In this document: one piece after another, positions 18,591-36,682 of the stretch
Layout of the letters: every line of letters begins with the position of its first letter
How positions within the stretch are numbered: position 1 is the first letter of the stretch
Virus record (IMG/VR): IMGVR_UViG_3300050821_005831
Coordinates: 1 to 50,798 of that record
Strand: one strand, 5' to 3'
Source of the DNA: a virus
DNA: 50,798 nucleotides
Program-made: the position numbers and the translations under genes
The notes under the pieces: model-generated
What the model saw: only the letters and a program-made list of their open reading frames with translations
What the model was told of the DNA's origin: nothing
Database searches by the model: none

Positions 18591-18844
18591 GACTCTGTGC
18601 GCTTCTCGTGCCAGCGTTTTTGATTGCGACGGCGAAGATCAGCCATACTCCACTCTACTGCCGTCCTCACGCCCTCTGACGTAAGGAACGCGTATCCATG
18701 CTCGTGCCATGCAAGCCCTGCCTGACACAACTCACCACGTCCCATTTTCGATGCGACGTTGCCATCCCAGGTAGGTCCGTTGGTGTAGAGTTGCCCAAGG
18801 ACATCAATTGCGGCAGGCGATAGTTCTAACGGTTTTTTGATCAT
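18587..18844 (-). CDS. small hypothetical protein between folE and dpdA
   Basis: An 85-residue basic protein. Residues 8-60 ([18 protein letters not shown], then [19 protein letters not shown] and [12 protein letters not shown]) look like a winged-helix fold ending in a strand pair. It overlaps both neighbours by four bases, so it is co-expressed with the deazaguanine genes. Possibly a small DNA-binding partner; unproven. Confidence 0.6.
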
Positions 18845-20178
18845 TGTGATGCCGATCTGACAAAGGACATAAATTCGTTGCGCGCGTCTGGATTACGGAA
18901 CAACGATCCGATCAATTTTGACGTGGTCGTGACGGAATTGGGTTTGCGAATACCCCTGCTCTCGATGCAGAGATGCCGCGCCTGAACTACCACGCCAACG
19001 CCTTGCGGTTTTAGATTGTCCCAAATGCACTCGGCGATCTGTGTCGTCAATCGTTCCTGTACTGACAGCCGATGCGCGAACACGTCAACAAGCCGCAACA
19101 TCTTGGACAGACCAATGATGCGTCCTTTAGGAATGTACCCAATGTGGACCACGCCAAAAAACGGCGCCAGATGGTGCTCGCAGTTGTGAACAGCCATGCC
19201 ATTGGCAAAGAAAGTCTTCGTTTCAGGAACATCCATGCACCATACATCTTCGCGCCACGATACATTTTCAACACCAAATACAACATGATTTGCCTGCGTC
19301 TTCCACCATTCCGTTGCGCTTGCGGAGCGTTTTGACCTAACATCGGCTCGACCACTTGCAATTGCGGCAGCGTGTTTACGCTTATTGAACATTGCAGTGC
19401 CGCGCGTGTTTGCTTCTCTCAACCTATCATGCACCCTGTTATGTTCAGACGTGGACAACCGTTCCAGGTTACCTGGATCGTTGTTCCACGTCACTTCGTC
19501 AATGTGATGAATAGGAGCCCTCTTTAGTAGCTCCCCTTTCACTGCATAATAGACGAACCGCTGTTCGGGAATTGGAAAGCCTTGAGGCGTCTTAATGGAA
19601 GGTCCGTTATTACGTCTATCATGTTTTCGACCAACCAAATTTACATAACCATCGTGGCGTGCAGCACGATACATTGACACGATACGATCTTGTTTCCTTA
19701 GGTCCGCAGCCTTAACCCAACCTCTATTGAACGTGAGGAACTTATGGTCGGGAGTGCAAAGCACTGTGTCGTGATCACAGTAAACGCGAACGAGCTTTGC
19801 ATTACGTCTTGTTATCCTAGGATTCTTGCACTGCTGTAAGCCAATCTGATATGTGTCAGGATTAACGGTGTACACCCAATCGCCATCCTTCAGATGTTGA
19901 ATTGGTATGCGGCCGCGTGGTGTTTCGATGAATGTTGATCCGACAACGCAATGGCTGTAAAAGGGGATGCCACTCTGAAACACCATTTGATCATATTGCT
20001 CGGCTCCATCTTTGAACGTTTTAAACAGGTCTTTGGGATCCTGCTCGTACCCCTCGCACCAAAACGCGAACGCCTTCGCAACGCGAGTAGGCGTGTCTTG
20101 CAGCCCTCCCCTTGTAGTATCCTCTCCGATCGCCTCAAGGATACCGAAGGCGTGTGCCGCTAATTTTACCGTGTCCAT
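18841..20178 (-). CDS. folE: GTP cyclohydrolase I interrupted by an intein
   Basis: FolE makes 7,8-dihydroneopterin triphosphate, the first step to preQ0. The frame is 445 residues, but removal of residues 77-332 leaves a normal 189-residue enzyme joined as [14 protein letters not shown], the zinc and active-site motif. Further FolE motifs are [26 protein letters not shown] and HLCIESRG. The intein has Cys1, TPDH, HNH and terminal HN motifs and Cys as +1 residue, so splicing should work. Until spliced the enzyme lacks its zinc site, making splicing a possible control point. Confidence 0.93.
19183..19950 (-). mobile_element. FolE intein with HNH homing endonuclease
   Basis: A 256-residue intein. 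It starts [13 protein letters not shown] (block A), has CTPDHKF (block B, TxxH), an HNH nuclease core ([16 protein letters not shown] and EHNRVHDR), and ends [16 protein letters not shown] (blocks F and G) before Cys. All residues needed for class 1 splicing are visible: Cys1, block B His, penultimate His, terminal Asn and Cys+1. The insertion is exactly before the zinc-binding cysteine of FolE, the most conserved codon, as usual for homing elements. Confidence 0.92.
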
Positions 20179-26640: not shown

Positions 26641-26700
26641 GTCGTCATCAGTGCATGTGGTACCACCATCATGCAGACGGGCACGTGTGCCCGTTTCGAC
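26641..26700 (-). ncRNA. hammerhead ribozyme 1 (type II)
   Basis: Core GAAA and CUGAUGA; stem III CGGGCAC/GTGCCCG; stem I TGCATG/CATGCA with an inner TGG/CCA; stem II GTC/GAC. Predicted cut between 26676 and 26675 after GUC. The stop of the upstream gene (TAG 26702-26700) touches its 5' edge. The 26084-26623 gene follows. Confidence 0.88.
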
Positions 26701-26948
26701 TATTGATCTTTTGTGCCCGTATCGAACTCGCGACACAATTTTTTGTACCTCGCAAGGTTCTTTTTGCAATAGGCCTGACTTGCTTTTTCAAGCTCATCCT
26801 CGGAGGGATTTTTTTCTCTTTTCTTTATGAGCTTCATTAGATCTTCGACCTTTGACTCAAGGGCCTCTAGTATGAGCTCCCGATCAGAAGGATTGGCGTT
26901 TAGGAGGTACTCATGTAGGCCTTTTGCTTCGTAGTAAACGTCAGGCAT
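26700..26948 (-). CDS. small charged helical protein
   Basis: An 82-residue protein, nearly all charged helix (RELILEALESKVEDLMKLIK), with no family recognised. Its start overlaps the end of the preceding gene and its TAG stop coincides with the 5' edge of ribozyme 1, so the 5' cleavage product keeps the full reading frame. Confidence 0.6.
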   Translation of the reverse strand: MPDVYYEAKGLHEYLLNANPSDRELILEALESKVEDLMKLIKKREKNPSEDELEKASQAYCKKNLARYKKLCREFDTGTKDQ

Positions 26949-27177
26949 CGCCTTTACCCTCCGCTATACCGCAACGAAACATGCTCAGGGATGCGCGAGC
27001 AATCATACTCGTTGCCTGAGTAATGATTGGATCGTTTTGATCTCGCGCGTTCTTATCAAGGAGATCGCTTAGCGCAATTAAGAACACCCGAATTTCCTCG
27101 AGTGACCATGGCAGATGATTTTTGCGGCGATGCATTGACGCAGCTCGCATGTCGGCCAAATTGGTATCTGTTATCAT
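26941..27177 (-). CDS. small hypothetical protein behind ribozyme 2
   Basis: A 78-residue protein starting MITDTNLADMRAAS at ATG 27177, 8 bases after AGGAG. The longer frame from 27222 would translate the ribozyme core and is rejected. Central segment WSLEEIRVFLIALSDLLDKN is helical. It overlaps the next gene (26700-26948). No family recognised. Confidence 0.6.
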   Translation of the reverse strand: MITDTNLADMRAASMHRRKNHLPWSLEEIRVFLIALSDLLDKNARDQNDPIITQATSMIARASLSMFRCGIAEGKGDA

Positions 27178-27195
27178 GTCTCTCTCCTTTTGGTT

Positions 27196-27256
27196 TGTCG
27201 TCATCAGTGCGTTGATAACCACTCAACGCAGACGGTCCCTTAGGACCGTTTCGACA
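27196..27256 (-). ncRNA. hammerhead ribozyme 2 (type II)
   Basis: The clearest copy. Stem II TGTC/GACA; GAAA; stem III ACGGTCC-TAAG-GGACCGT; GUC; stem I TGCGTTGA/TCAACGCA, 8 perfect pairs; CUGAUGA followed by one extra C. Predicted cut between 27231 and 27230. AGGAGAGAGAC and ATG 27177 follow. Confidence 0.92.
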
Positions 27257-27388
27257 TTTAAATGACAGCTTGCAGGGGTTTCACGGTGTCTCTATGCGTC
27301 ACCGGTGTTGGGTACCGAACCCCGCCTTGTTGCGTTAGCTAGCCCGTTGCTGTCGCGGTTGCCTCGAAAGACCCCACCACCGGAACTC
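27257..27388 (-). other. intergenic region with long-range pairing
   Basis: No gene. On the - strand CCGGTG (27383-27378) can pair with CACCGG (27307-27302), enclosing an 82-base segment with a GGG/CCC arm. It has tRNA-like size, but no T-loop consensus or 5-bp T-stem, so it is not called a tRNA. It is the only unit boundary in the array where more than 100 bases separate gene and ribozyme. Confidence 0.4.
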
Positions 27389-27706
27389 TTATGCTTTTAT
27401 TTTCTTGAGTGTGTTGTTTGCCGAACCTTTAACCAATCGAAGGTTGCGGCCGCCCAGCTTGAGGCATTTAGTCAAAGCCTCGACGCCTTCAGGTCCTATT
27501 CCACGTGCTGCAGCCATCACGGTACAAAATTGCGGGCGACGCGTTTTGCCCTCAAACCAATTGTGTAATGTGTTTGCTGATAGCCCGACCGATGTCTTAG
27601 CAATTTTTGAATTGCTAATTCCAACGCGTGCTTTCGCTTCGCGAAGGTAATCGATCACCGGATCCTTGTCGCGGAACATATAGGTCGTATAAAGTTTGGC
27701 TTTCAT
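27389..27706 (-). CDS. XRE/Cro-like helix-turn-helix protein
   Basis: A 105-residue basic protein. Residues 25-60 (ARVGISNSKIAKTSVGLSAN, TLHNWFEGKTRRP) fit the Cro/CI-type HTH, with the usual WxxGxxxxP after the recognition helix. Probably a DNA-binding regulator, possibly of the array itself, since a palindromic operator lies at its head. Last gene of the unit after ribozyme 3. Confidence 0.7.
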   Translation of the reverse strand: MKAKLYTTYMFRDKDPVIDYLREAKARVGISNSKIAKTSVGLSANTLHNWFEGKTRRPQFCTVMAAARGIGPEGVEALTKCLKLGGRNLRLVKGSANNTLKKIKA

Positions 27707-27707
27707 T

Positions 27708-28040
27708 TTAGCTGCCCTTTGTTGCGTAGTGCTTGACGCCTTTAACTTTGACCATTCGAAGTGCGCCTTGCTCGACGGCCCGGTTCAATGAGTTATAAAT
27801 TGAACCATCTTTGACGCCCGCCGCCCGCAATTTATCTTTAAAGTGGCCGAGGGGCATCAATTGCTTTGCACCAAGCCCTGCCGCGAGTTCCCATGCGGGC
27901 TTGTCACCCGCGCGGATCTTCGTTGCCGTACCTGCTACAATTTTGAAATTTAGGTCTTCAACCTTGTAGGGCTGCAAGACCTCGAGAATGTCGCCGACGT
28001 GTTTCTTGTCGACCACAAACGATATAAACCATTTAGCCAT
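27708..28040 (-). CDS. small protein with winged-helix-like C-terminus
   Basis: A 110-residue protein starting at ATG 28040 (overlap with the upstream stop); the frame to 28100 is rejected. N-terminus MAKWFISFVVDKKHVGDILE resembles a ferredoxin-like half; the C-terminus (DKLRAAGVKDGSIYNSLNRA, VEQGALRMVKVKGVKHY) resembles a winged helix. Same plan as 24696-25037. Possibly a regulator. Confidence 0.65.
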   Translation of the reverse strand: MAKWFISFVVDKKHVGDILEVLQPYKVEDLNFKIVAGTATKIRAGDKPAWELAAGLGAKQLMPLGHFKDKLRAAGVKDGSIYNSLNRAVEQGALRMVKVKGVKHYATKGS

Positions 28041-28180
28041 CAGAGCACCCGTGCAAACAGGTATAAGGCTGCAACGATTACGGCAGCATAAAAACCACAT
28101 AGGGTCAATATTCTACGCCGTGCTAAACGACTTCGCTCAGACTTTCTGAGTTCGTCAAATCGATCATCTATCATACTCAT
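28040..28180 (-). CDS. 46-residue membrane protein
   Basis: Not long enough for routine gene calling but well supported: ATG 28180 follows the ribozyme 3 site GGAGAGAGCT, and the stop overlaps the next start (TGATG). A basic first half (RKSERSRLARRRI) is followed by a single hydrophobic helix (LTLCGFYAAVIVAALYLF). Predicted inner-membrane protein with the N-terminus inside. Confidence 0.7.
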   Translation of the reverse strand: MSMIDDRFDELRKSERSRLARRRILTLCGFYAAVIVAALYLFARVL

Positions 28181-28198
28181 AGCTCTCTCCTTTGGTTT

Positions 28199-28256
28199 GT
28201 CATCGTCAGTGCGTGTGGTACCACCATCACGCAGACGGCCCTTAGGCCGTTTCGAC
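28199..28256 (-). ncRNA. hammerhead ribozyme 3 (type II)
   Basis: Stem II GTC/GAC; GAAA; stem III ACGGCC-TAAG-GGCCGT; GUC; stem I TGCGTG/CACGCA with an A bulge and TGG/CCA; CUGACGA, a change at the one core position that is free to vary. Cut between 28234 and 28233. The upstream gene ends inside its stem III loop. Confidence 0.9.
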
Positions 28257-28955
28257 TCTCATGTCATGAATCTGCACACGCCTAGCGATCTCTTCGATCG
28301 GTGGCAGTGTGCCTGACCCTCTAATAATCCGACCGTCGTCCATCTTGAACGGCTCTGGATTTTGATAACCAATATCGTCGCCAAACACGGCTGCCGACAA
28401 GGCTTTGTAATACTCACCTAAGATGTGGAAATTCATGATGGTAATGGTCGGATCTGACCATTCAATCCATTGCGTCATATCGGGCAGTATCGCGTATCGC
28501 GTGATGGCATCAACGGGGACGATACCAAAATAGCAACAATTGCCCATGCCCTTCAGGCTTGTCTTCCACAACATATCGGGACCAGTAAAATTTGATTCCA
28601 ATCGATCGCGGAACCATTTTGTTGAGCCCCACTTTTCTTTTTTGTTCAATGTGTGGACGTGCGCCCAATCGGGACTCTGACGTGTCGCCTGCTCGAGGAA
28701 GTCTTCGTCAGGTGACAGCTTGAACGGATTGAGCTTGTGTGGATTGATCTCGAGGATCAATCCAGGCTCATCCTTTTTCGCGTTGACGGAGCACCACGCA
28801 TAGTACAGCGAATAGGCTTGCGTCAGGTAAACGGCTTTCGGGTTCGACTCGATCGTATGATCCCAATTGCCTTTCTTGCTAGTACCACGCGGCTTAATTC
28901 CATCGCGCAAGATGCGGTCAAGGAATCGTGAGCTTGTGCCGTGATATATTTTCAT
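28242..28955 (-). CDS. ADP-ribosyltransferase-fold protein
   Basis: A 237-residue protein. The start KIYHGTSSRFLDRILRDGIK and the segment KAVYLTQAYSLYYAW, followed by GLILEINPHKL, follow the H-Y pattern of the ART/KptA-like fold. Phage ARTs often modify host RNA polymerase or ribosomal proteins. A clear catalytic Glu is not assigned, so activity is open. Its TAA stop lies in the stem III loop of ribozyme 3, so the last five codons form part of the ribozyme. Confidence 0.6.
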   Translation of the reverse strand: MKIYHGTSSRFLDRILRDGIKPRGTSKKGNWDHTIESNPKAVYLTQAYSLYYAWCSVNAKKDEPGLILEINPHKLNPFKLSPDEDFLEQATRQSPDWAHVHTLNKKEKWGSTKWFRDRLESNFTGPDMLWKTSLKGMGNCCYFGIVPVDAITRYAILPDMTQWIEWSDPTITIMNFHILGEYYKALSAAVFGDDIGYQNPEPFKMDDGRIIRGSGTLPPIEEIARRVQIHDMRVETA

Positions 28956-28972
28956 GTCTCTCTCCTTGGTTT

Positions 28973-29031
28973 GTCATCATCAGTACCACGATAACCAATC
29001 GTGATAGACGGGGCCTTAGCCCCGTTTCGAC
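28973..29031 (-). ncRNA. hammerhead ribozyme 4 (type II)
   Basis: Stem II GTC/GAC; GAAA; stem III ACGGGGC-TAAG-GCCCCGT; GUC; stem I TATCACGA/TCGTGGTA with one G-T pair; CUGAUGA. Cut between 29007 and 29006. GGAGAGAGAC and ATG 28955 follow. Confidence 0.9.
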
Positions 29032-29237
29032 TATTTTTTTCCGAACCTAAGTTCATTGGAAATTTCGTTGATAACGTCGTCCAACACATCAATGGAATCA
29101 GCACAAAGTTTTCGAACGCAACAGGCATTCTTAAATGATACGATTGACTGCTCCAACAATCCTGCTTCTCGAAGCCGTGCGCCTTCCGTAATGAACAGGT
29201 TGATGAGGTCAAAACTAATTCTTTTAGCATCAACCAT
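29031..29237 (-). CDS. small helical protein
   Basis: A 68-residue protein starting MVDAKRISFDLINLF at ATG 29237, overlapping the previous stop (TGATG). Two Cys residues in NACCVRKLC. It ends with TAG at the very edge of ribozyme 4. No family recognised. Confidence 0.6.
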   Translation of the reverse strand: MVDAKRISFDLINLFITEGARLREAGLLEQSIVSFKNACCVRKLCADSIDVLDDVINEISNELRFGKK

Positions 29238-29506
29238 CACGCATCTCCATCCGCAAAGCAATGAATGCAATAGCAACGACCTTCACCATGGTAGCTCGTA
29301 TCGTCGCCACCATACTCGGTGCCCGTATAGGTCCACTCGTGTTCGCATTCTTCTTCTTCTTCATCAAAATCAATAATATTGCCTTCGCAGTACTGGCATT
29401 CGGCGTCGAAACAGCTGTTGAGTTTGCTGCAGTCCTCACACTTCCAATCAGTGTGCGGCAGATCAACTTCTTCAGGCTGTACACACTCGCCATTATAACG
29501 TGCCAT
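29237..29506 (-). CDS. cysteine-rich zinc-ribbon-like protein
   Basis: An 89-residue very acidic protein with several CxxC knuckles: WKCEDCSKLNSC, ECQYCEG and CYCIHC. The first pair resembles RanBP2-type or rubredoxin-like zinc knuckles. It follows ribozyme 5 with GGAGAGAGAC before ATG 29506. Possibly an acidic protein- or RNA-binding adaptor; function unknown. Confidence 0.65.
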   Translation of the reverse strand: MARYNGECVQPEEVDLPHTDWKCEDCSKLNSCFDAECQYCEGNIIDFDEEEEECEHEWTYTGTEYGGDDTSYHGEGRCYCIHCFADGDA

Positions 29507-29527
29507 GTCTCTCTCCTATGTTGGCTT

Positions 29528-29586
29528 GTCATCATCAGTGCGCCGATAGCCAATCGACACAGACGGGCACGTGTGCCCGTTTCGAC
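29528..29586 (-). ncRNA. hammerhead ribozyme 5 (type II)
   Basis: Stem II GTC/GAC; GAAA; stem III CGGGCAC/GTGCCCG; GUC; stem I TGTGTCGA/TCGGCGCA with two G-T pairs replacing Watson-Crick pairs of other copies; CUGAUGA. Cut between 29562 and 29561. Confidence 0.9.
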
Positions 29587-29816
29587 TATTTGGGTGTGGT
29601 TAACAACGTGTCGCTAATAACTTTGTACACACCTCTGCGGAGATGCGCGTGTGCAACACGTTGCTCCGTTGCAGTTTGGGTAATCCGATTGTATAGCACA
29701 AGATAGGATTTATCCTGAGTAAGCGCGATTATTTGTGAGATGTCGATCTCATCTTTGTCATGTGAATTATACAAGGCGTGCCAAACCGAGTCTACGAATG
29801 TTGAGCCGATCATCAT
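29586..29816 (-). CDS. small hypothetical protein
   Basis: A 76-residue protein starting MMIGSTFVDSVWHALYN at ATG 29816 (ATG 29813 also possible); a TTG at 29822 would add two residues. It ends LLTTPK-stop with TAG touching ribozyme 5. Predicted mixed alpha/beta, no family recognised. It follows the 29819-29998 gene directly. Confidence 0.6.
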   Translation of the reverse strand: MMIGSTFVDSVWHALYNSHDKDEIDISQIIALTQDKSYLVLYNRITQTATEQRVAHAHLRRGVYKVISDTLLTTPK

Positions 29817-29818
29817 GG

Positions 29819-29998
29819 TCAATCCCCGTCAATCGGTTCATCAGCCCAGTAATATGGATCAGTCAGGACGTCGGCCCTGTACCCTTTCATTTTTTCTTTG
29901 TGGCATTTGGGACAGGTGTAGCAAAGAAAAATTGCCCGTGCATCCCATTGCGCTTCCCGCTCGTCACGTGAACATACGTGGTATTTGAGCTCGCTCAT
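29819..29998 (-). CDS. 59-residue zinc-knuckle protein
   Basis: Starts MSELKYHVCSRDEREAQW at ATG 29998, in an ATGA overlap with the upstream gene. Cys residues at CYTCPKCHKEK give a CxxCxxC/H pattern for one metal. Acidic end (DPYYWADEPIDGD). Similar one-zinc-knuckle peptides are frequent among phage early genes. Confidence 0.65.
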   Translation of the reverse strand: MSELKYHVCSRDEREAQWDARAIFLCYTCPKCHKEKMKGYRADVLTDPYYWADEPIDGD

Positions 29999-30216
29999 TG
30001 CCTTAACTCCCTTACTCGCCTATCGAACTCACGTTCGGACGTGTCGTCAAATACGAGGGCGCAGTGCGCTAAGCGACCATGTTCATCGTACCGCGCAGAG
30101 TGGGGAATGTCTTCGGTCCTAATGCGGTGGCAAACGCCTTCTTGATACATCGCGTCTGCAACCACGCCTTCGATCTGCCCGAAGATGGAGCATATTCTAG
30201 TTAAGCTTCTTTTCAT
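29995..30216 (-). CDS. small hypothetical protein behind ribozyme 6
   Basis: A 73-residue protein starting MKRSLTRICSIFGQIEGV at ATG 30216 after GGAGAGAGAC. The longer frame to 30345 translates through the ribozyme and is rejected. Mixed charge, no family. First of three coupled genes. Confidence 0.6.
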   Translation of the reverse strand: MKRSLTRICSIFGQIEGVVADAMYQEGVCHRIRTEDIPHSARYDEHGRLAHCALVFDDTSEREFDRRVRELRQ

Positions 30217-30234
30217 GTCTCTCTCCTTTGGTTT

Positions 30235-30294
30235 GTCATCATCAGTGATGCAGGAACCACCATGCATCAGACGCGCCCTTAGGCGCGTTTCGAC
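30235..30294 (-). ncRNA. hammerhead ribozyme 6 (type II)
   Basis: Stem II GTC/GAC; GAAA; stem III ACGCGCC-TAAG-GGCGCGT; GUC; stem I TGATGCA/TGCATCA, 7 perfect pairs; CUGAUGA. Cut between 30270 and 30269. The upstream gene stops inside the stem III loop. Confidence 0.9.
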
Positions 30295-30860
30295 TTTTTC
30301 TTTGCAGGCGCTTCTACCTTGTAGAGGTAGCTGTTGGATATGCAAATGTTGCGATCTACATAACCATTGCGCTTCTTCTCGTATCGCACCTCACTCTGAT
30401 AGGGCCCTGCTTTCACGATACGCCCCAGCGTATCAGGGATAACCGTGTCCATGACCCAATCCCCATCCTCGAATTGCGGCGGGGGATCTTTTTTCGTATG
30501 TGCAGGCATGACGCAAAAACGACCATCTTGTTCAAAGATGTGGAACGCGTCAGGACGCATTCCAGCTCGTTTGCATATGTTCGCTCTGTGTCGTTCCGCA
30601 TCTTCGCGTGTTTCGTGTTCGAAGTACGGGGAGTGTGGACGACGTGTCGCGGTCTCAGTTTCAGATTTGGCAGGCTTGGCAGTTTTCACCGCCTTGCCTT
30701 CGAATTCCTTGAGCCATCGTTCGAGTTTCCCTTTCGGGATTCCCAACTCCTTGCCCAAGGCTCCCGCTGCCTCAGTACCCGATTCCATAAACGTTCGTTT
30801 GCAACGATCCTTGGGGAACTCTTGCCCCTTGACACGTTTCGGTGGTGAAGGCTTTTTCAC
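30279..30860 (-). CDS. basic protein with HTH-like N-terminus
   Basis: A 193-residue basic protein. Residues 25-52 (TEAAGALGKELGIPKGKLER, WLKEFEG) fit a transposase- or terminase-like HTH; residues 105-185 contain an SH3-like barrel candidate (FEDGDWVMDTVIPDTLGRIV). It overlaps the DUF932-type gene start region by 4 bases and its TAA lies within ribozyme 6. Confidence 0.6.
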   Translation of the reverse strand: MKKPSPPKRVKGQEFPKDRCKRTFMESGTEAAGALGKELGIPKGKLERWLKEFEGKAVKTAKPAKSETETATRRPHSPYFEHETREDAERHRANICKRAGMRPDAFHIFEQDGRFCVMPAHTKKDPPPQFEDGDWVMDTVIPDTLGRIVKAGPYQSEVRYEKKRNGYVDRNICISNSYLYKVEAPAKKKSKRA

Positions 30861-31897
30861 TTCGCAAGCTCCACTGCCATGTCAAAGGCTCGCCGCTTCA
30901 GGTTGGCGTTTTGACCAAACCACGCGGTCCTCAATGCGGCGTCACGCTGCCGACCCAACTCGTGGTCGATAACGTATGTCACCGCATTGACAGCGCCCCA
31001 CAACGTTCCTTTCGCTGAGGGCAGTTGATTACCGGGCGAAAATTCGAGGGCGTTGCGGAAGGCCGACAACACTCGCGGCTCCGTTGGTTCCTCGTTATTC
31101 TTCTTCGCTTCGGCCGCAGCCTTCTTTGGATCGTACTGCATCACGTCGCAGAAGAATTGCTCGACCTGCTTCTCGTTGACCTTCGCCTTCGATAACAGTG
31201 TCGCTTCTTCCTTGAGTTGATTGAAATTGTCGACCGCAAGCTTGAGTGCCGTTTCTGCAACCTTCTTCGTTGCATCATTGAACTCGATAGAATGAGGCAT
31301 ACGAAACGTGCCTTCACCTTTTGCGCTGAGCTTGCGTGTCAGTGTGTTCCAGCACCATGTCCTTGATGCTAGATTTTGGAACACCATCGCACGCCCCTGC
31401 TGATGCGGTTGCATCAACAAGAGATAGCCAACAACTTCATCGTCCTTACCCAGCGAAAACGCTTTGTTGATCTTAGCCAAAGCCCAAATGAATTTGCCTT
31501 GACCAAGCGAGCCCATATGCTCCATTGCCATGTGACCCGACACGACAAACTTCTTGAAGAAGCCCACCGAGTCGTGATTTTGCACAGGCTTCCAATTGAC
31601 GCCCGTGACTGTCAGCATGTGGTCGTCGGTGTCACGAACAAGCGCTCGCTTGTCCTTGATCACCTTGCTGTGCTTGTCCTTGTCGAGGTAGAAAATATCT
31701 CGCTTCGAAACAGTCCAATCAATGTGTGCCGCCTTCAACATTTGTTCGGGCGACATATTATTGTTGACCTGCACACCAAGCCCACCAGACCACGGCGGTG
31801 CTCCCGCATGTGCCATTGTTTCAATGGTACGATTTGGAAGGCTCCGCCTGTTGGCACGAGGCTCACGCTCCGCTACTGCTGGATTTGTTGTCATCAT
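30857..31897 (-). CDS. DUF932-type phage/plasmid protein
   Basis: A 346-residue protein with the pattern of the DUF932 family: LVRDTDDHMLTVTGVNWKPV, FVVSGHMAMEHMGSLGQGK, YLLLMQPHQQGRAMVFQ and RTWCWNTL. Members occur widely in phages and plasmids; their biochemical role is not established. Start ATG 31897 or the following ATG 31894, both after the ribozyme 7 ribosome binding site. Confidence 0.8.
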   Translation of the reverse strand: MMTTNPAVAEREPRANRRSLPNRTIETMAHAGAPPWSGGLGVQVNNNMSPEQMLKAAHIDWTVSKRDIFYLDKDKHSKVIKDKRALVRDTDDHMLTVTGVNWKPVQNHDSVGFFKKFVVSGHMAMEHMGSLGQGKFIWALAKINKAFSLGKDDEVVGYLLLMQPHQQGRAMVFQNLASRTWCWNTLTRKLSAKGEGTFRMPHSIEFNDATKKVAETALKLAVDNFNQLKEEATLLSKAKVNEKQVEQFFCDVMQYDPKKAAAEAKKNNEEPTEPRVLSAFRNALEFSPGNQLPSAKGTLWGAVNAVTYVIDHELGRQRDAALRTAWFGQNANLKRRAFDMAVELAK

Positions 31898-31913
31898 CTC
31901 TCTCCTATTGGTT

Positions 31914-31976
31914 TGCCATCATCAGTACGTTGGTAACCACACAACGCAGACGGCGCTTGATAGCGCCGTTTCGGCA
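31914..31976 (-). ncRNA. hammerhead ribozyme 7 (type II), with covarying stem II
   Basis: Stem II is TGCC/GGCA, where other copies have TGTC/GACA: both strands changed together. GAAA; stem III ACGGCGC/GCGCCGT with loop TATCAA; GUC; stem I TGCGTTG/CAACGTA with one G-T pair; CUGAUGA. Cut between 31949 and 31948. Confidence 0.92.
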
Positions 31977-32135
31977 TTATTTCTGCAGCATTTTTACGTG
32001 GCAATAATCGCACACGATCTTACCGTTGATGCGATTCTCGTTACCGCGCCTGCCTTGGCGACAACAGCCCGGCATTTCGCATTTGTCAGGCAATAGTTGC
32101 CAGACGACGAAAATCAAATGATCAATTAGTCGCAT
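31977..32135 (-). CDS. 52-residue zinc-knuckle protein
   Basis: Starts MRLIDHLIFVVWQLLPDK at ATG 32135 with GGAG 7 bases before. Contains CEMPGCCRQG and VCDYCHVK, enough Cys and His for one zinc ion (HNH-like treble-clef half or ribbon). The stop is directly before ribozyme 7. Function unknown. Confidence 0.65.
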   Translation of the reverse strand: MRLIDHLIFVVWQLLPDKCEMPGCCRQGRRGNENRINGKIVCDYCHVKMLQK

Positions 32136-32146
32136 GATCTGCTCCA

Positions 32147-32443
32147 TCACTCAAACAATCGTTCTGTGCCAACGGACCAACCGAAGGACAGCCATCGATC
32201 GATCGACGGCTCCTTATATGAACATACTTGAACAGAACGAGTTCTTGGAACACCGTCGGCGTGTCTGTCATAAACCAACTTCAAGGCATCGGTTGTTGTT
32301 GCAGGCCAACAGGAGTCATGCCGAAGCATGTCCAAGGGGAACTCGCCGGGGCCAGTGACGTAGTACGCGTAGAACTTTCGTGGACGATCGCTCACATCAT
32401 ATAGATGCTCAGCTCTAAAACGATCCTTTGTCCGTGTCATCAT
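32147..32443 (-). CDS. hypothetical protein behind ribozyme 8
   Basis: A 98-residue protein starting at ATG 32443 (or 32440) after GGAGAGAGAC. Mixed strands and helices (KFYAYYVTGPGEF, LKLVYDRHADGVPRTRSV). No family recognised. It shares the unit with the small zinc-knuckle gene. Confidence 0.6.
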   Translation of the reverse strand: MMTRTKDRFRAEHLYDVSDRPRKFYAYYVTGPGEFPLDMLRHDSCWPATTTDALKLVYDRHADGVPRTRSVQVCSYKEPSIDRWLSFGWSVGTERLFE

Positions 32444-32459
32444 GTCTCTCTCCTTTGGT

Positions 32460-32522
32460 TTGTCATCATCAGTACGAAGGGAACCACCCTTCGCAGACGC
32501 CCTCGAGAGGGCGTTTCGACAA
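32460..32522 (-). ncRNA. hammerhead ribozyme 8 (type II)
   Basis: Stem II TTGTC/GACAA, 5 pairs; GAAA; stem III ACGCCCTC/GAGGGCGT, sequence quite unlike other copies but fully paired; GUC; stem I TGCGAAGG/CCTTCGTA with one G-T pair; CUGAUGA. Cut between 32496 and 32495. Confidence 0.92.
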
Positions 32523-32553
32523 GCCGATGTGGGCGCTGCTCGGCAAACACAGC
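32521..32553. repeat. 33-base hairpin repeat, copy B
   Basis: Nearly the same sequence as 25530-25562 (29 of 33 identical), with inverted ends GCCGA/TCGGC. It lies just before ribozyme 8 on the transcript, and another short hairpin (GGAGGT/ACCTCC) precedes it. Confidence 0.6.
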
Positions 32554-32590
32554 ATTGCTAGGAGGTTCGATCTACCTCCACAGCCCAAAC

Positions 32591-32845
32591 TTAATCTTCG
32601 TGCTCTTCTTCTTCGTATACCGTCATGTCTTCGGCGTTTCCCGTCAAAGCTCCATCGGCATCCTTGACGCCAAACTCATCGGCAATGCGAATACACAACT
32701 CGATCAGTTTTTGACGTTTGGTAAACTCGCTATCGTAACTATCCCCGCCAGGTCTACCAGTGCTCAGCTTGTCGAGCATGTGCTCATAACAATCGCGCAG
32801 ATCAGCATAGGTGTTGTGGAATCGGCAGTAGGACATATTCGTCAT
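32591..32845 (-). CDS. small acidic phage protein (MSYCRFHNT type)
   Basis: An 84-residue protein with the start SYCRFHNTYADLRDCYEHM, a motif I recognise from many phage and prophage small proteins of unknown role. Acidic C-terminus. It follows ribozyme 9 and its site GGAGAGAG before ATG 32845. Confidence 0.7.
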   Translation of the reverse strand: MTNMSYCRFHNTYADLRDCYEHMLDKLSTGRPGGDSYDSEFTKRQKLIELCIRIADEFGVKDADGALTGNAEDMTVYEEEEHED

Positions 32846-32865
32846 GATCTCTCTCCTTTTGATTT

Positions 32866-32923
32866 GTCATCATCAGTACGCAGGTCATCATCCCGCGTAG
32901 ACGGTCCCTTAGGACCGTTCGAC
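32866..32923 (-). ncRNA. hammerhead ribozyme 9, core deletion
   Basis: All three helices are kept (stem II GTC/GAC, stem III CGGTCC-TAAG-GGACCG, stem I TACGCGGG/CCTGCGTA), but the core reads GAA instead of GAAA: one of three A residues is missing. Activity is probably reduced or lost. Expected cut site between 32900 and 32899. Confidence 0.8.
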
Positions 32924-33421
32924 TTAGCCTTCGTTATATCGCGCATCATCCCAAGTTCCGTCTTGCTCGGGCACATGTTCTGCCTCTTGACGCATCCACT
33001 TGTCACGCGCCGCGTCCATTTTTTCAATTGTGGACTTGGACAACGGCTTGCCTTCCCAACGGTGGTAGCTGACGGGTATGTCAATTAGCTCCAATTCCAG
33101 CAACGCTTCCCATTTGCGTTTGATTGAAAACACCGCGTGGTTGTTGGGAATGACGCGATAGCATTCCTGTTCTGCTTCCCAAATGTCGGCGACTTCTTGA
33201 CCTTCGTTGTCAATAATGTCCCGAACACGTTCCTGGTATTGCTTTTGCGTCAAACACTCGAACCATTCACCATCCCGCCAAACGATGAAACGGTAACGCA
33301 TCTCATCAATGGCCTGACGATCCAACACGACTGCAAAGGATTCCACGTCTGTGTTCATATATGGATCGCGAAGCGTGAAGCGTTCGAACTCTTTATAGTA
33401 GTCCAATCGCAATTTCCTCAT
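32924..33421 (-). CDS. acidic hypothetical protein behind ribozyme 10
   Basis: A 165-residue protein starting MRKLRLDYYKEFERF at ATG 33421; the frame to 33496 runs through the ribozyme and is rejected. Rich in Glu, Arg, Trp and Tyr (VWRDGEWFECLTQKQYQERV). No family recognised. TAA stop one base from ribozyme 9. Confidence 0.6.
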   Translation of the reverse strand: MRKLRLDYYKEFERFTLRDPYMNTDVESFAVVLDRQAIDEMRYRFIVWRDGEWFECLTQKQYQERVRDIIDNEGQEVADIWEAEQECYRVIPNNHAVFSIKRKWEALLELELIDIPVSYHRWEGKPLSKSTIEKMDAARDKWMRQEAEHVPEQDGTWDDARYNEG

Positions 33422-33437
33422 GTCTCTCTCCTTTGGT

Positions 33438-33507
33438 TTGTCATCATCAGTACCACGATAACCAATCGTGATAGACGCTGCGCATTTCGCGCGCAACGTT
33501 TCGACAA
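33438..33507 (-). ncRNA. hammerhead ribozyme 10 (type II)
   Basis: Stem II TTGTC/GACAA; GAAA; stem III ACGTTGCGC/GCGCAGCGT, 9 pairs with one T-G; GUC; stem I TATCACGA/TCGTGGTA as in ribozyme 4; CUGAUGA. Cut between 33474 and 33473. Confidence 0.9.
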
Positions 33508-33774
33508 TTATTTTTCTTCCGCGATCAGCTTGTCTACTGCTTCCTTCGCATCACAAAACGCGGCTTGTGATGTTGCATAAGGCCCATACCCAGGACCTTC
33601 TGCAATGCTAATGTACCATCCTTTCGGATTTGGATGGCCCATTGGTTTAACCCACTCATTATCTTTGTGGTAGTCTAACCACGCACCTCTTTCAGCCCAA
33701 AATATTTTGAAATCGCCATGATCACCTTCATGGGACTTCGCATATGGGTCCGCTGTGTCGTCGCGCATTGTCAT
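33508..33774 (-). CDS. small hypothetical protein
   Basis: An 88-residue protein with many aromatic and glycine residues (FKIFWAERGAWLDYH, GWYISIAEGPGYGPYAT) and a helical end (DAKEAVDKLIAEEK). It is coupled to the upstream gene by an overlap at 33771-33774. No family recognised. Confidence 0.6.
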   Translation of the reverse strand: MTMRDDTADPYAKSHEGDHGDFKIFWAERGAWLDYHKDNEWVKPMGHPNPKGWYISIAEGPGYGPYATSQAAFCDAKEAVDKLIAEEK

Positions 33775-33995
33775 TTTAGCTTCTCCACTTTGACCAAATA
33801 GCCGTCGCCCTGTCCTACGTCCCCAAGCACAATTTGCAGTCCGTGAGGCCGGATCAATTTGTCGATCTCTTCCATGATCTCTTCAGGAGTTGAATGCAAC
33901 ATATCGATGTAAGCACCACCCCTTATTTTCTTCGGCAGGTCGTGGTCATTGCCCAAGGGATCGTAGCCTTGAAGATCAACTTCGATAATTTTCAT
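33771..33995 (-). CDS. small hypothetical protein behind ribozyme 11
   Basis: A 74-residue protein starting MKIIEVDLQGYDPLGND at ATG 33995 after GGAGAGAGAT; the frame to 34046 would translate the ribozyme. Likely alpha/beta (TPEEIMEEIDKLIRPHGLQI, VLGDVGQGDGYLVKVEK). No family recognised. Confidence 0.6.
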   Translation of the reverse strand: MKIIEVDLQGYDPLGNDHDLPKKIRGGAYIDMLHSTPEEIMEEIDKLIRPHGLQIVLGDVGQGDGYLVKVEKLK

Positions 33996-34014
33996 ATCTC
34001 TCTCCTTTTGGTTT

Positions 34015-34074
34015 GTCGTCATCAGTGCATGTGGAACCACCATCATGCAGACGGTCCCTTAGGACCGTTTCGAC
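34015..34074 (-). ncRNA. hammerhead ribozyme 11 (type II)
   Basis: Stem II GTC/GAC; GAAA; stem III ACGGTCC-TAAG-GGACCGT; GUC; stem I TGCATG/CATGCA with TGG/CC inside; CUGAUGA followed by extra C. Cut between 34050 and 34049. The upstream gene stops in the stem III loop. Confidence 0.9.
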
Positions 34075-34241
34075 TTTTGCTTTTTTATGCGAGCTCGTTC
34101 TTTTGCAACGCGGCTTTTGTGCAAAAACAAAAACCCACCATCATCTGCCACCAATCGATGCGTGAACCCACGCTTGTACTCGGGATTGATTGCAGGATTT
34201 CGCTCAATGCGGTCATATTTCACAAGGCGTTCCTGTTTCAT
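34059..34241 (-). CDS. 60-residue basic protein
   Basis: Strongly basic, starting MKQERLVKYDRIERNPAI and ending with a Lys/Arg-rich tail whose last codons and TAA stop lie inside ribozyme 11 (stem II, GAAA and stem III loop). Possibly nucleic-acid binding. Overlaps the upstream gene by four bases. Confidence 0.6.
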   Translation of the reverse strand: MKQERLVKYDRIERNPAINPEYKRGFTHRLVADDGGFLFLHKSRVAKERARIKKQKSKRS

Positions 34242-34984
34242 CGCAATGCCTTGTGCTGTGATCGTCCGCCAACCTGTTGGTCGAGGCCGATTCTATTGCC
34301 CGCGGCATAACCATCAGACGCACCCTTGCTGTGCAGGTGCGTTGATAGACTGGTTCTTTTCATTCGCATCCCGCCGACGTTCTTCTCAATGTATTTGGTC
34401 AACGCGTTTTGTGACCGATCATACATTGACGCAAGGGCCGGCAGGTTTGATCCAGTCGTTTCCGATTTGATCTCACCACGCTTCGCCGCTTCAATGCGTT
34501 CCATGATACGCTGGCACAACCTTTTGGTGCAGGCACCACGAAACGCAACGCGATATGGGGACTGTTCCTTGATGGGCAATCCCTTCGCGCCTTCGCGCGC
34601 AAGACGATCGATCGCTTCCAGCAGGTACATAAACATCATCTTTGCAACTTCGATGTTATGCTTCTTGCCAACAAACGAATGAATGTTCTTACTGCCTCGC
34701 GTTGAGCTGTAGAAGTACTCGCAAAAATATAATTTTGCGACCTGCACTGCGAGGGGGCGGCGCCAAGGATTGGACGACGTGATAATTGAATTGTCCACGC
34801 CGATGTCCTTCGTCTCGTCGTCCGCGAGATTGTCAATGTCCAACATTGACAGGTTGTGCTCGACCAACAACGCCTGCGCCTTCTCAGCCGCGGCAGCAGC
34901 CTCATTTTCGTTTGCGTTGTTGCCAGCGAGTGCCAAGAGCTTGCGTACTCGTTCGAGCAATTTGGCTCTTTCACTGTCATTCAT
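34238..34984 (-). CDS. DUF2786-type protein
   Basis: A 248-residue protein with the DUF2786 start (LLERVRKLLALAGNNANENE, AAAAAEKAQALLVEHNLSM), followed by a larger domain including VAKLYFCEYFYS and FVGKKHNIEVAKMMFMYL. This pair of domains is common in phages and prophages; its function is not established. It follows ribozyme 12. Confidence 0.8.
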   Translation of the reverse strand: MNDSERAKLLERVRKLLALAGNNANENEAAAAAEKAQALLVEHNLSMLDIDNLADDETKDIGVDNSIITSSNPWRRPLAVQVAKLYFCEYFYSSTRGSKNIHSFVGKKHNIEVAKMMFMYLLEAIDRLAREGAKGLPIKEQSPYRVAFRGACTKRLCQRIMERIEAAKRGEIKSETTGSNLPALASMYDRSQNALTKYIEKNVGGMRMKRTSLSTHLHSKGASDGYAAGNRIGLDQQVGGRSQHKALR

Positions 34985-35003
34985 GATCTCTCTCCTTATG
35001 GTC

Positions 35004-35063
35004 TGTCATCATCAGTTGCAGGGGACCAATCCTGCAAGACGCCCTTGGTAGGGCGTTTCGACA
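35004..35063 (-). ncRNA. hammerhead ribozyme 12 (type II)
   Basis: Stem II TGTC/GACA; GAAA; stem III ACGCCC/GGGCGT with loop TACCAA; GUC; stem I TTGCAGG/CCTGCAA, a sequence found in no other copy but perfectly paired; CUGAUGA. Cut between 35038 and 35037. Confidence 0.9.
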
Positions 35064-35270
35064 TTAGCCAAACAACAAATCGCTTGTCTGATCTTCGAAT
35101 TCCTTCGGCACTTCCAGCCCGTAATGCCCAACATACGGCGAGTACCCGCGACGGACTGGCTTGATGCCGTTCGACTCGAGCAGCTCTTTCGCTTCTTTGA
35201 ATGAAAAACGACCGCCTTCGTTCGCCTTCTCAACGCTGAACTGTGCCATCTCAATATATTTGCGTGTCAT
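35064..35270 (-). CDS. small hypothetical protein behind ribozyme 13
   Basis: A 68-residue protein starting MTRKYIEMAQFSVEKANE at ATG 35270, with GGAGAGAG upstream; the frame to 35363 runs through the ribozyme. Central segment SFKEAKELLESNGIKPV is helical. No family recognised. Confidence 0.6.
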   Translation of the reverse strand: MTRKYIEMAQFSVEKANEGGRFSFKEAKELLESNGIKPVRRGYSPYVGHYGLEVPKEFEDQTSDLLFG

Positions 35271-35289
35271 TTTCTCTCTCCATTTTGGT

Positions 35290-35358
35290 TTGTCATCATC
35301 AGTACCACGGGGACCACCGCGTGGTAGACGTTGCGCATTCGCGCGCAACGTTTCGACA
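35290..35358 (-). ncRNA. hammerhead ribozyme 13 (type II)
   Basis: Stem II TTGTC/GACAA; GAAA; stem III ACGTTGCGC/GCGCAACGT, 9 perfect pairs; GUC; stem I TACCACG/CGTGGTA; CUGAUGA. Cut between 35327 and 35326. Confidence 0.92.
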
Positions 35359-35359
35359 A

Positions 35360-35686
35360 TCAACGTTTGTATGATCGAAAATAAAATTCTTTTTCAACGA
35401 CAAGTTTGTGGTTGTCGTTTACGAAACCAAAGGCACTGCCAAGTTCGTTGGGCTTGCGGTTGCGTTCGATTTGGTGCAACGTTTTGGTTTGTTTGATGCC
35501 TTCCATTTCGTCATCGTATGTCGCACGAATATGGTCTATCCACATACCCCAGCAATGCCGTTCGGCGTTGCAGGCGTCATCGTAGATTGCGATGACATTG
35601 GTTTTGTCATCAATGATTTGTTTGATGACAAAAACGATTTTATGACCACGAGGCTCCATATTGTCAGGCACGATCAATTTTTTCAT
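35360..35686 (-). CDS. hypothetical protein behind ribozyme 14
   Basis: A 108-residue protein starting MKKLIVPDNMEPRGHKIV at ATG 35686. The upstream ATG of the longer frame is itself part of the ribosome binding site (ATGGAGAG). Alternating strands and helices (IVFVIKQIIDDKTNVIAIYD). No family recognised. Confidence 0.6.
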   Translation of the reverse strand: MKKLIVPDNMEPRGHKIVFVIKQIIDDKTNVIAIYDDACNAERHCWGMWIDHIRATYDDEMEGIKQTKTLHQIERNRKPNELGSAFGFVNDNHKLVVEKEFYFRSYKR

Positions 35687-35704
35687 CAGACTCTCCATTT
35701 TGGC

Positions 35705-35773
35705 TTGTCATCATCAGCACGTTGAGAGCCACTCAACGTAGACATTGCGCATTGGCGCGCAACGTTTCGACAA
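35705..35773 (-). ncRNA. hammerhead ribozyme 14 (type II)
   Basis: Stem II TTGTC/GACAA; GAAA; stem III ACGTTGCGC/GCGCAATGT with one G-T; triplet GUC; stem I TACGTTGA/TCAACGTG with a T-G closing pair; CUGAUGA. Cut between 35741 and 35740. Confidence 0.9.
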
Positions 35774-35774
35774 T

Positions 35775-36212
35775 TCAAGGCAAACGTTCGTCGTCGTTTG
35801 CATATTCGGTCGTATTGGGAACTTCCATTGGGTGTATCACAATCGATACAGCGCCAGGCATATCGCCATCAACGAAAAAACCATTTTCGTCGCGCGGCAA
35901 CAAATCAGCGGACCAGGCTTGTTCGTTGCGATACCCTTCATCATCGTGCCACGATTTTAGAACGTGGACGGGAACGTTGAGATCGATTTGATCATTCGGC
36001 CACCATTTTGAATTGGTGAGCAAGTCGAGCAAATCGCGTGCAGTCATGGGTGCTTTCGATGTAGTGGCCCCTAATCGTGACGGGCCTGCATCCAAAAGCG
36101 TTGCAATCGTTCGTGTGATGGTGTTAACGAGTTCATCGTTATCCAGTGCGTTGGCATCAACGGCACCAAGCATGTTGATCACATGAGATCGAATTGCAGG
36201 TATGTTTGACAT
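35775..36212 (-). CDS. acidic hypothetical protein behind ribozyme 15
   Basis: A 145-residue acidic protein starting MSNIPAIRSHVINML at ATG 36212, after GGAGAG; the frame to 36284 crosses the ribozyme. The C-terminal half contains MTARDLLDLLTNSKW and DLNVPVHVLKSWHDD, FFVDGDMPGAVSIVIHP, a pattern I associate with small phage proteins of unknown function. Confidence 0.6.
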   Translation of the reverse strand: MSNIPAIRSHVINMLGAVDANALDNDELVNTITRTIATLLDAGPSRLGATTSKAPMTARDLLDLLTNSKWWPNDQIDLNVPVHVLKSWHDDEGYRNEQAWSADLLPRDENGFFVDGDMPGAVSIVIHPMEVPNTTEYANDDERLP

Positions 36213-36232
36213 TTCAGACTCTCCATTTTGGC

Positions 36233-36301
36233 TTGTCATCATCAGTGCGTGAGAAGCCATCATCACGCAGACGTCGCGCAACATGCGCGACGTTTCGACA
36301 A
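36233..36301 (-). ncRNA. hammerhead ribozyme 15 (type II)
   Basis: Stem II TTGTC/GACAA; GAAA; stem III ACGTCGCGC/GCGCGACGT, 9 perfect pairs with loop ATGTT; GUC; stem I TGCGTGA/TCACGCA; CUGAUGA. Cut between 36270 and 36269. Confidence 0.92.
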
Positions 36302-36303
36302 AA

Positions 36304-36528
36304 TCAATCAGCTTCGCAAGGTTGGGCCATAGTACCGAGCTCCCAGCCTTCGGCCCTTTCGATTATTTCAAAATCAAAGGGGCCTTTATAGCCAGCCCCT
36401 ATCAAGTACCTTCGAAAAATTTTCGAGGCACCATTCACAGTGCAAGCCAAGCCGAGTTCATCGTCATATAGAAAAACAGGCTTGTAGCCTCGGCCCAGTT
36501 GAAATTTTCGCATTGATGGGCTTTTCAT
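36304..36528 (-). CDS. first gene of the ribozyme array
   Basis: A 74-residue protein starting MKSPSMRKFQLGRGYKPV at ATG 36528 with GGAGAGCACGAA upstream; the frame from 36558 begins before that site. Contains VFLYDDELGLACTVNGAS. No family recognised. It is the only array gene separated from its ribozyme by a promoter and operator. Confidence 0.6.
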   Translation of the reverse strand: MKSPSMRKFQLGRGYKPVFLYDDELGLACTVNGASKIFRRYLIGAGYKGPFDFEIIERAEGWELGTMAQPCEAD

Positions 36529-36558
36529 TTCGTGCTCTCCATTTTTTAGGCATACCAC

Positions 36559-36599
36559 CCTTGTACCAAATTATACAAGGGTGGCGCCCGAGCTGTCAT
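36559..36599 (-). promoter_or_regulatory. promoter with palindromic operator at the head of the array
   Basis: On the - strand ATGACA (36599-36594) and TATAAT (36575-36570) are separated by 18 bases, a good sigma70-type promoter. An inverted repeat CCACCCTTGTA/TACAAGGGTGG surrounds the -10, as expected for a repressor site. The -35 overlaps the 3' part of ribozyme 16. Confidence 0.65.
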
Positions 36600-36663
36600 C
36601 ATCAGATTGCGGTTGCTCAAATCGCAATGAGGGCGCACGCATTCACTGCGTGGCCCTTTCGAT
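36595..36663 (-). ncRNA. hammerhead ribozyme 16, divergent copy
   Basis: GAAA; stem III AGGGC/GCCCT extended by CACGC/GCGTG with one bulge; triplet CUC; stem I ATTGCG/CGCAAT; CUGAUGA. Stem II is weak (only two pairs, ATC against GAC). Predicted cut between 36629 and 36628. It has no gene-proximal ribosome binding site directly behind it. Confidence 0.7.
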
Positions 36664-36682
36664 TTAATTAGGAGAGGAGAGA

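What the first reader, a model, noticed from the sequence alone, without database searches (positions are those of the whole stretch)
26641..36663. Array of 16 hammerhead ribozymes between phage genes
Sixteen elements of about 58-70 bases, all on the coding strand, each lie directly upstream of a ribosome binding site and start codon and directly downstream of the previous stop codon. Each can be folded as a type II (stem II open) hammerhead: 5' stem II strand, GAAA, hairpin III, UH cleavage site (GUC in 15 copies, CUC in copy 16), hairpin I, CUGANGA, 3' stem II strand. Single hammerheads are known in phages and bacteria; a dense array that divides a whole accessory operon into 1-3-gene messages is, to my knowledge, not a described system.
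Basis: partly seen in the sequence, partly recalled or inferred. Interest (0 to 1): 0.96.

Follow-up and report, generated by a model that had tools for sequence, protein, structure and literature searches.

The report
Sixteen self-cutting RNAs between phage genes
A phage operon carries a predicted self-cutting RNA (hammerhead ribozyme) at almost every gene boundary that is not already overlapping, so its one long message would chop itself into short messages with hairpin-capped ends; small clusters of this kind were reported in 2011, but this is a far larger and unusually regular example with relatives in other phages.

Summary
Rfam's Hammerhead_II model finds 12 copies above its cut-off and 15 at E<1e-3, all on the coding (-) strand. 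A model built without copy 16 finds that copy at 22 bits. Paired stems and a loop I-tail pseudoknot covary strongly.

The array is part of a recurrent architecture. Related phage contigs carry 12, 10, 8 and 5 copies, and more distant contigs carry 4-7. Across five arrays the upstream stop codon sits in stem II or loop III, always before the cut. The pseudoknot ends about 2 nt before the Shine-Dalgarno, and the start lies 21-31 nt after the core. Junctions without a ribozyme are mostly overlapping (median gap -1 nt).

Best reading: co-transcriptional self-cleavage cuts one transcript into translationally coupled units with hairpin ends. No cleavage was measured.

The parts
36588..36666 (-). HHR copy 16 (first in transcript order), CUC, elongated stem III; predicted cut after 36629
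   Evidence: Leave-out model R2 22.3 bits; loop I GAGC / tail GCUC pseudoknot; no Rfam hit at E<1e-3
36228..36302 (-). HHR copy 15, GUC, cut after 36270
   Evidence: RF02276 37.6 bits; pseudoknot UGGCU/AGCCA
35700..35774 (-). HHR copy 14, GUC, cut after 35741
   Evidence: RF02276 34.9 bits, E 4.8e-7; pseudoknot UGGCU/AGCCA
35285..35360 (-). HHR copy 13, GUC, cut after 35327
   Evidence: RF02276 45.7 bits
34998..35065 (-). HHR copy 12, GUC, cut after 35038
   Evidence: RF02276 50.2 bits; pseudoknot UGGUC/GACCA
34008..34077 (-). HHR copy 11, GUC, cut after 34050; upstream stop codon UAA lies in loop III
   Evidence: RF02276 44.8 bits
33433..33508 (-). HHR copy 10, GUC, cut after 33474
   Evidence: RF02276 36.0 bits, E 2.4e-7
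32859..32926 (-). HHR copy 9, core defect (GAAC, one A of GAAA missing); probably inactive or an assembly error; nominal cut after 32900
   Evidence: RF02276 41.1 bits; sequence
32455..32523 (-). HHR copy 8, GUC, cut after 32496; about 67 nt after the previous gene
   Evidence: RF02276 49 bits
31908..31978 (-). HHR copy 7, GUC, cut after 31949; stem II changed on both sides (GCC/GGC); directly 5' of the DUF932 gene
   Evidence: RF02276 48.3 bits
30228..30297 (-). HHR copy 6, GUC, cut after 30270; upstream stop codon UAA lies in loop III
   Evidence: RF02276 45.8 bits
29521..29589 (-). HHR copy 5, GUC, cut after 29562
   Evidence: RF02276 36.6 bits, E 1.7e-7; pseudoknot UGGCU/AGCCA
28966..29034 (-). 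HHR copy 4, GUC, cut after 29007
   Evidence: RF02276 45.5 bits
28192..28259 (-). HHR copy 3, GUC, core CUGACGA, cut after 28234; upstream stop codon in loop III
   Evidence: RF02276 39.9 bits
27190..27258 (-). HHR copy 2, GUC, cut after 27231; about 130 nt after the previous gene
   Evidence: RF02276 50.4 bits
26634..26703 (-). HHR copy 1 (last in transcript order), GUC, cut after 26676; weak 3-bp pseudoknot
   Evidence: RF02276 37.5 bits
37352..38887 (-). SNF2-type helicase directly upstream of the array; orthologues hold the same place in the L016, L017 and L018 arrays
   Evidence: Pfam SNF2-rel_dom
30857..31897 (-). DUF932 protein (phrog_1221); has an HHR directly 5' in all five related arrays
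   Evidence: Pfam PF06067
36570..36599 (-). Best promoter-like site (ATGACA-18-TATAAT, 11/12), its -35 inside the copy 16 tail and its -10 inside a palindrome; possible operon promoter/operator
   Evidence: Consensus scan only; promoter-like sites overall are not above shuffles

Best explanation
The 16 elements are type II hammerhead ribozymes (15 with intact core, one probably dead) placed at nearly every gene junction of an accessory operon that is not already overlapping. As RNA polymerase passes, each folds, helped by a pseudoknot between loop I and the tail just before the Shine-Dalgarno, and cuts the transcript after GUC. The operon RNA becomes a series of units of one to a few translationally coupled genes. 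Each upstream unit keeps its stop codon and ends in the stem III hairpin with a 2',3'-cyclic phosphate. Each downstream unit begins with a 5'-OH on the first base of the stem I hairpin. These capped ends should resist exonucleases and 5'-monophosphate-dependent decay, so units can have separate lifetimes and translation rates from one promoter. Shown here: identity, covariation, placement, conservation across related phages. Inferred from established hammerhead biochemistry: cleavage and end chemistry. Inferred only: that independent stability or expression is the selected benefit.
For: Identity: RF02276 hits. Covariation: 93.5% of cells paired with 73 two-sided changes against 20 in shuffles, and at most 42.7% paired when partners are slid; 55 copies give 238 two-sided changes against 66. 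Pseudoknot: 60 intact copies average 5.0 Watson-Crick pairs against 3.4 with shuffled tails, maximum 3.8 in 500. GUC in 59 of 60. Placement over five arrays: the upstream stop codon lies before the cut in all 45 copies where one was found, in 6 of them inside loop III; start codons lie 21-31 nt after the core in all 49 scored. Junctions without an HHR: median gap -1 nt, 28 of 38 at most 10 nt; with an HHR: median 80 nt, about the length of the element. Intrinsic terminators in the region are not above chance. Recurrence: 12, 10, 8 and 5 copies in related contigs. Prior experiments: tandem phage hammerheads cleave in vitro and in E. coli, and the pseudoknot drives fast cleavage. Hairpin ends: median -11.4 kcal/mol for stem III and -9.8 for stem I.
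Against: No cleavage, 5'-OH end or transcript was measured. Copy 9 has a broken core and copy 1 only a 3-bp pseudoknot. Tight spacing is normal for phage genomes. The nearest isolate found, Edwardsiella phage vB_EpM_ZHS, has the helicase and DUF932 but no hammerhead in the 35 kb searched, and several helicase relatives lack arrays or have one decayed copy, so the arrays are dispensable. Some orthologues have an HHR in one phage and not in another.
Confidence: 0.7

Rival explanations
1. The ribozymes mainly control translation of the gene just downstream. The pseudoknot tail abuts the Shine-Dalgarno, so ribosome loading and ribozyme folding exclude each other; cleavage resets the 5' UTR rather than serving message separation.
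For: Gap from pseudoknot to Shine-Dalgarno is a median of about 2 nt. The HHR tends to stay with the downstream orthologue while the upstream gene changes: 34 of 42 orthologue pairs concordant against 20.9 expected, p=0.0005; DUF932 5 of 5. In-line probing in the literature shows the pseudoknot forms without the rest of the ribozyme.
Against: Ancestry makes orthologue pairs non-independent; without L016 the pair test gives p=0.007 and the group test p=0.06. No conserved pairing that hides the start codon was seen: the GACAUG that can pair with the 5' stem II strand is present in only some copies. Processing would give the same placement.
Confidence: 0.3
2. The repeats are recombination sites: shared hammerhead sequence lets phages swap gene cassettes, and catalysis is secondary.
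For: Gene order differs between arrays while HHR-gene links persist. Stems I and III are shared between copies independently: among the intact window copies 2 pairs share stem III, 1 shares stem I, none both.
Against: Recombination needs near-identical DNA, yet stems diverge with compensatory changes that preserve structure. All copies are in one orientation between stop codon and Shine-Dalgarno.
Confidence: 0.12
3. Units between two cuts re-ligate (self-ligation or host RtcB) into circular messages.
For: Each unit carries a 5' stem I half and a 3' stem III half whose stem II strands match in 43 of 45 neighbouring pairs; the expected end chemistry suits RtcB.
Against: The informative stem II double changes (window copy 7 and L017:6705, GCC/GGC) compensate within one copy, not across neighbours. 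No RtcB in seven of these phage records (records incomplete). Perreault et al. looked for circular products and found none.
Confidence: 0.06
4. The elements are hairpin repeats that resemble hammerheads but do not cleave.
For: Copy 9 has a damaged core; there are no activity data.
Against: Core bases are kept in 15 of 16 while stems vary freely, and the tertiary pseudoknot covaries.
Confidence: 0.03

Closest known systems
Type II hammerhead ribozyme, Rfam RF02276
   Same: Core, stem order, GUC site, open stem II, pseudoknot of loop I with the 3' tail
   Different: Stem II here is GUC/GAC with a one-base bulge next to the core in nearly all copies; the tail pseudoknot ends at the Shine-Dalgarno
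Clustered hammerheads flanking genes in prophages (Perreault et al. 2011, PMC3088659)
   Same: Several hammerheads around single genes or short gene blocks, with mRNA processing proposed; A. tumefaciens, Azorhizobium and C. scindens arrangements shown to cleave
   Different: 16 copies over 10 kb, nearly every non-overlapping junction occupied, same locus in related phages, fixed geometry to stop codon and Shine-Dalgarno. The size of the largest cluster in that paper's figure could not be read here
Theta ribozymes in gut phages (PMC10879173)
   Same: Self-cleaving ribozymes encoded by Caudoviricetes phages
   Different: HDV-like fold placed at tRNA 3' ends, not at protein-gene junctions

Membership tests
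Type II hammerhead (RF02276) | Score against the curated covariance model | tested here: met
   12 of 16 above gathering, 15 at E<1e-3; copy 16 only by leave-out model
Type II hammerhead (RF02276) | Complete catalytic core (CUGANGA, GAAA, A15.1-U16.1, H17) | tested here: met
   15 of 16 intact; copy 9 fails, GAAC
Type II hammerhead (RF02276) | Stems I and III closed by loops, stem II open, with compensatory changes | tested here: met
Type II hammerhead (RF02276) | Pseudoknot between loop I and the tail 3' of stem II | tested here: met
   Mean 5.0 bp against 3.4 shuffled, several pair types
Type II hammerhead (RF02276) | Self-cleavage 3' of H17 giving cyclic phosphate and 5'-OH | not testable with these tools
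   Needs in vitro transcription
Clustered phage hammerheads (Perreault 2011) | Several hammerheads flanking genes or gene blocks in a phage genome | tested here: met
   16 in 10 kb of an IMG/VR virus record; phage replication genes around it
Clustered phage hammerheads (Perreault 2011) | Cutting of the polycistronic RNA at the copies | not testable with these tools
   No transcript data

The most novel reading that the evidence does not exclude
A lineage of phages builds its accessory operon from ribozyme-gene cassettes. One compact RNA element supplies the stop codon region for the gene before, the cut, hairpin caps for both new ends, and a pseudoknot that abuts the next ribosome site, so ribosomes and ribozyme compete at each junction. 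Cassettes move with their downstream gene, giving an RNA-only way to make exchangeable, independently expressed messages from one promoter.
Probability: 0.35. Interest if true: 0.8.

Novelty: new variant of a known kind. Interest (0 to 1): 0.66.

Why it matters
The role of hammerheads in phages has been open since at least 2011. An operon with sixteen copies in fixed geometry, plus related phages that have the same genes with and without a ribozyme in front, turns that question into direct comparisons: end mapping, half-life and translation of the same gene with active, inactive or absent ribozyme. If processing is confirmed, it is a protein-free way to split a bacterial polycistronic message, and the stop-ribozyme-Shine-Dalgarno cassette would be a compact part for expression design.

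Tried and rejected
Exact 25-base tail pattern in viral contigs: no hits. Megablast of the region against known phages: none. Relatives found by the DUF932 protein were mostly contigs without hammerheads. Other Rfam ribozyme classes in the window and relatives: none at gathering. Alphaproteobacterial genomes: 1 of 385 with a hit, but only 13 candidates per genome were scored, so this is weak evidence of rarity. Bacterial genome scan gave single copies or pairs, e.g. Paenibacillus. RtcB in seven of these records: none. Start-codon hiding by the 5' stem II strand appears in some predicted folds but the pairing bases are not conserved. Intrinsic terminators and promoters: counts not above shuffles; one strong promoter-like site in the copy 16 tail. 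Paper searches found no arrays larger than those of Perreault 2011; only open-licence papers were searchable.
Full report
What is there. The window is an IMG/VR virus record of 50,798 bases with phage replication genes (DNA polymerase, SNF2-type and DnaB-like helicases, RecA, sliding clamp, SbcC). Between 26634 and 36666, on the - strand, which is the coding strand, lie sixteen hammerhead-like elements. Rfam RF02276 (type II hammerhead) reports twelve at or above its curated score and fifteen at E<1e-3. An unfiltered search with a model of the copies themselves gives exactly sixteen, then a drop from 45.9 to 14.8 bits. Copy 16, which Rfam does not report, still scores 22.3 bits with a model built without it.

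Structure. On an alignment of the 16 copies the four helices (stems I, II, III and the pseudoknot) pair in 93.5% of cells, with 73 two-sided changes against a mean of 20 in shuffles. Sliding the partners drops pairing to 27-43%. Over 55 copies from ten contigs the three stems show 238 two-sided changes against 66. In 60 intact copies loop I and the tail downstream of stem II pair over 5.0 bases on average, against 3.4 with tails exchanged; the pair types vary (UGGUU/AACCA, UGGCU/AGCCA, UGGUC/GACCA, UGAGC/GCUCA, UUGAUC/GAUCAA). Perreault et al. showed that this pseudoknot drives fast cleavage. Fifteen window copies have a complete core; copy 9 has lost one A of GAAA.

Placement. In five arrays (51 copies) an upstream stop codon was found near 45. 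It ends mostly 2-7 nt before G12, that is at or in the 5' strand of stem II. In six copies it is the UAA of loop III. In all 45 it precedes the cut, so cutting leaves no stop-less reading frame. Start codons lie 21-31 nt after the core in all 49 copies scored. The pseudoknot's 3' strand ends a median of about 2 nt before the Shine-Dalgarno. Gene junctions without a ribozyme have a median gap of -1 nt (28 of 38 at most 10 nt), those with one 80 nt. So the operon alternates between overlapping, probably translationally coupled, junctions and junctions filled by a ribozyme. These counts rest on simple gene calls made here.

Relatives. A pattern scan of viral contigs and model searches of the whole records found 12, 10 and 8 copies in three contigs that share the upstream helicase and the DUF932 gene. 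A fourth contig with DUF932 has 5. More distant contigs have 7 (L184), 6 (L166) and 4 (L174); L049 holds a divergent form in four copies over two searches. Sixteen is the largest array found here, which does not exclude larger ones elsewhere. The nearest isolate found, Edwardsiella phage vB_EpM_ZHS, has none in the 35 kb searched.

Evolution. Orthologous genes tend to keep their ribozyme state although gene order differs: 34 of 42 pairs agree against 20.9 expected (p=0.0005; without L016 p=0.007, group test p=0.06). DUF932 has a hammerhead directly 5' in five of five arrays, with no orthologous upstream neighbours. Stems I and III are shared between copies independently, which suggests recombination within the elements. 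The first copy in each of the four largest related arrays has a longer stem III (79-95 nt elements).

How it most likely works. Cleavage 3' of C17 would release an upstream message ending in a stem III hairpin with a cyclic phosphate, and a downstream message starting with a 5'-OH on stem I (end chemistry from established hammerhead biochemistry; hairpin energies). Both ends should slow decay. Because the pseudoknot abuts the Shine-Dalgarno, ribosome loading and ribozyme folding probably compete; this step is inference. Splitting of the message is the common consequence. Whether the benefit is stability, separate expression or cassette exchange is not decided here.

What is known. Perreault et al. 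[quoted passage not shown] coli. The kind is therefore known. The size, the near-complete occupation of non-overlapping junctions, the fixed geometry and the conservation within a phage group are the new parts. The array genes are mostly of unknown function.

Noticed in passing
window 18841-20178 (-): GTP cyclohydrolase I gene interrupted by an intein with an HNH endonuclease (Pfam Intein_splicing, HNH_3), beside a queuine tRNA-ribosyltransferase-like gene: possible 7-deazaguanine DNA modification pathway.
   Followed up: partly
window 36540-36600 (-): Near-consensus promoter (ATGACA-18-TATAAT) whose -35 lies in the copy 16 tail and whose -10 lies inside a palindrome CCACCCTTGTA...TACAAGGGTGG; possible operator or 5' UTR hairpin.
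   Followed up: partly
L016, L017, L018, L045 upstream of the first hammerhead: The stretch between the helicase and the first hammerhead shares short motifs by eye (CTTTATAATAG, AAGGGGACCGAC, GATCCAT), perhaps a shared promoter or leader RNA.
   Followed up: no
L016:6197-6291, L017:1809-1901, L018:2307-2394, window 36588-36666: The first hammerhead of each array has an extended stem III; three of the four loops carry GTAATG.
   Followed up: no
L039:11964-12042 and L045:8565-8643: Helicase relatives with a single, core-damaged hammerhead at the leader position (CUGAAAGA; CCGAUGA), suggesting decay of arrays.
   Followed up: partly
L049:15756-17625 (-): Divergent array with stem II AGUC/GACU without the bulge and long stem III hairpins.
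   Followed up: partly
window 27389-27706 (-): Weak transcriptional-repressor match (phrog_5301) within the array, with relatives in L018 and L063.
   Followed up: no
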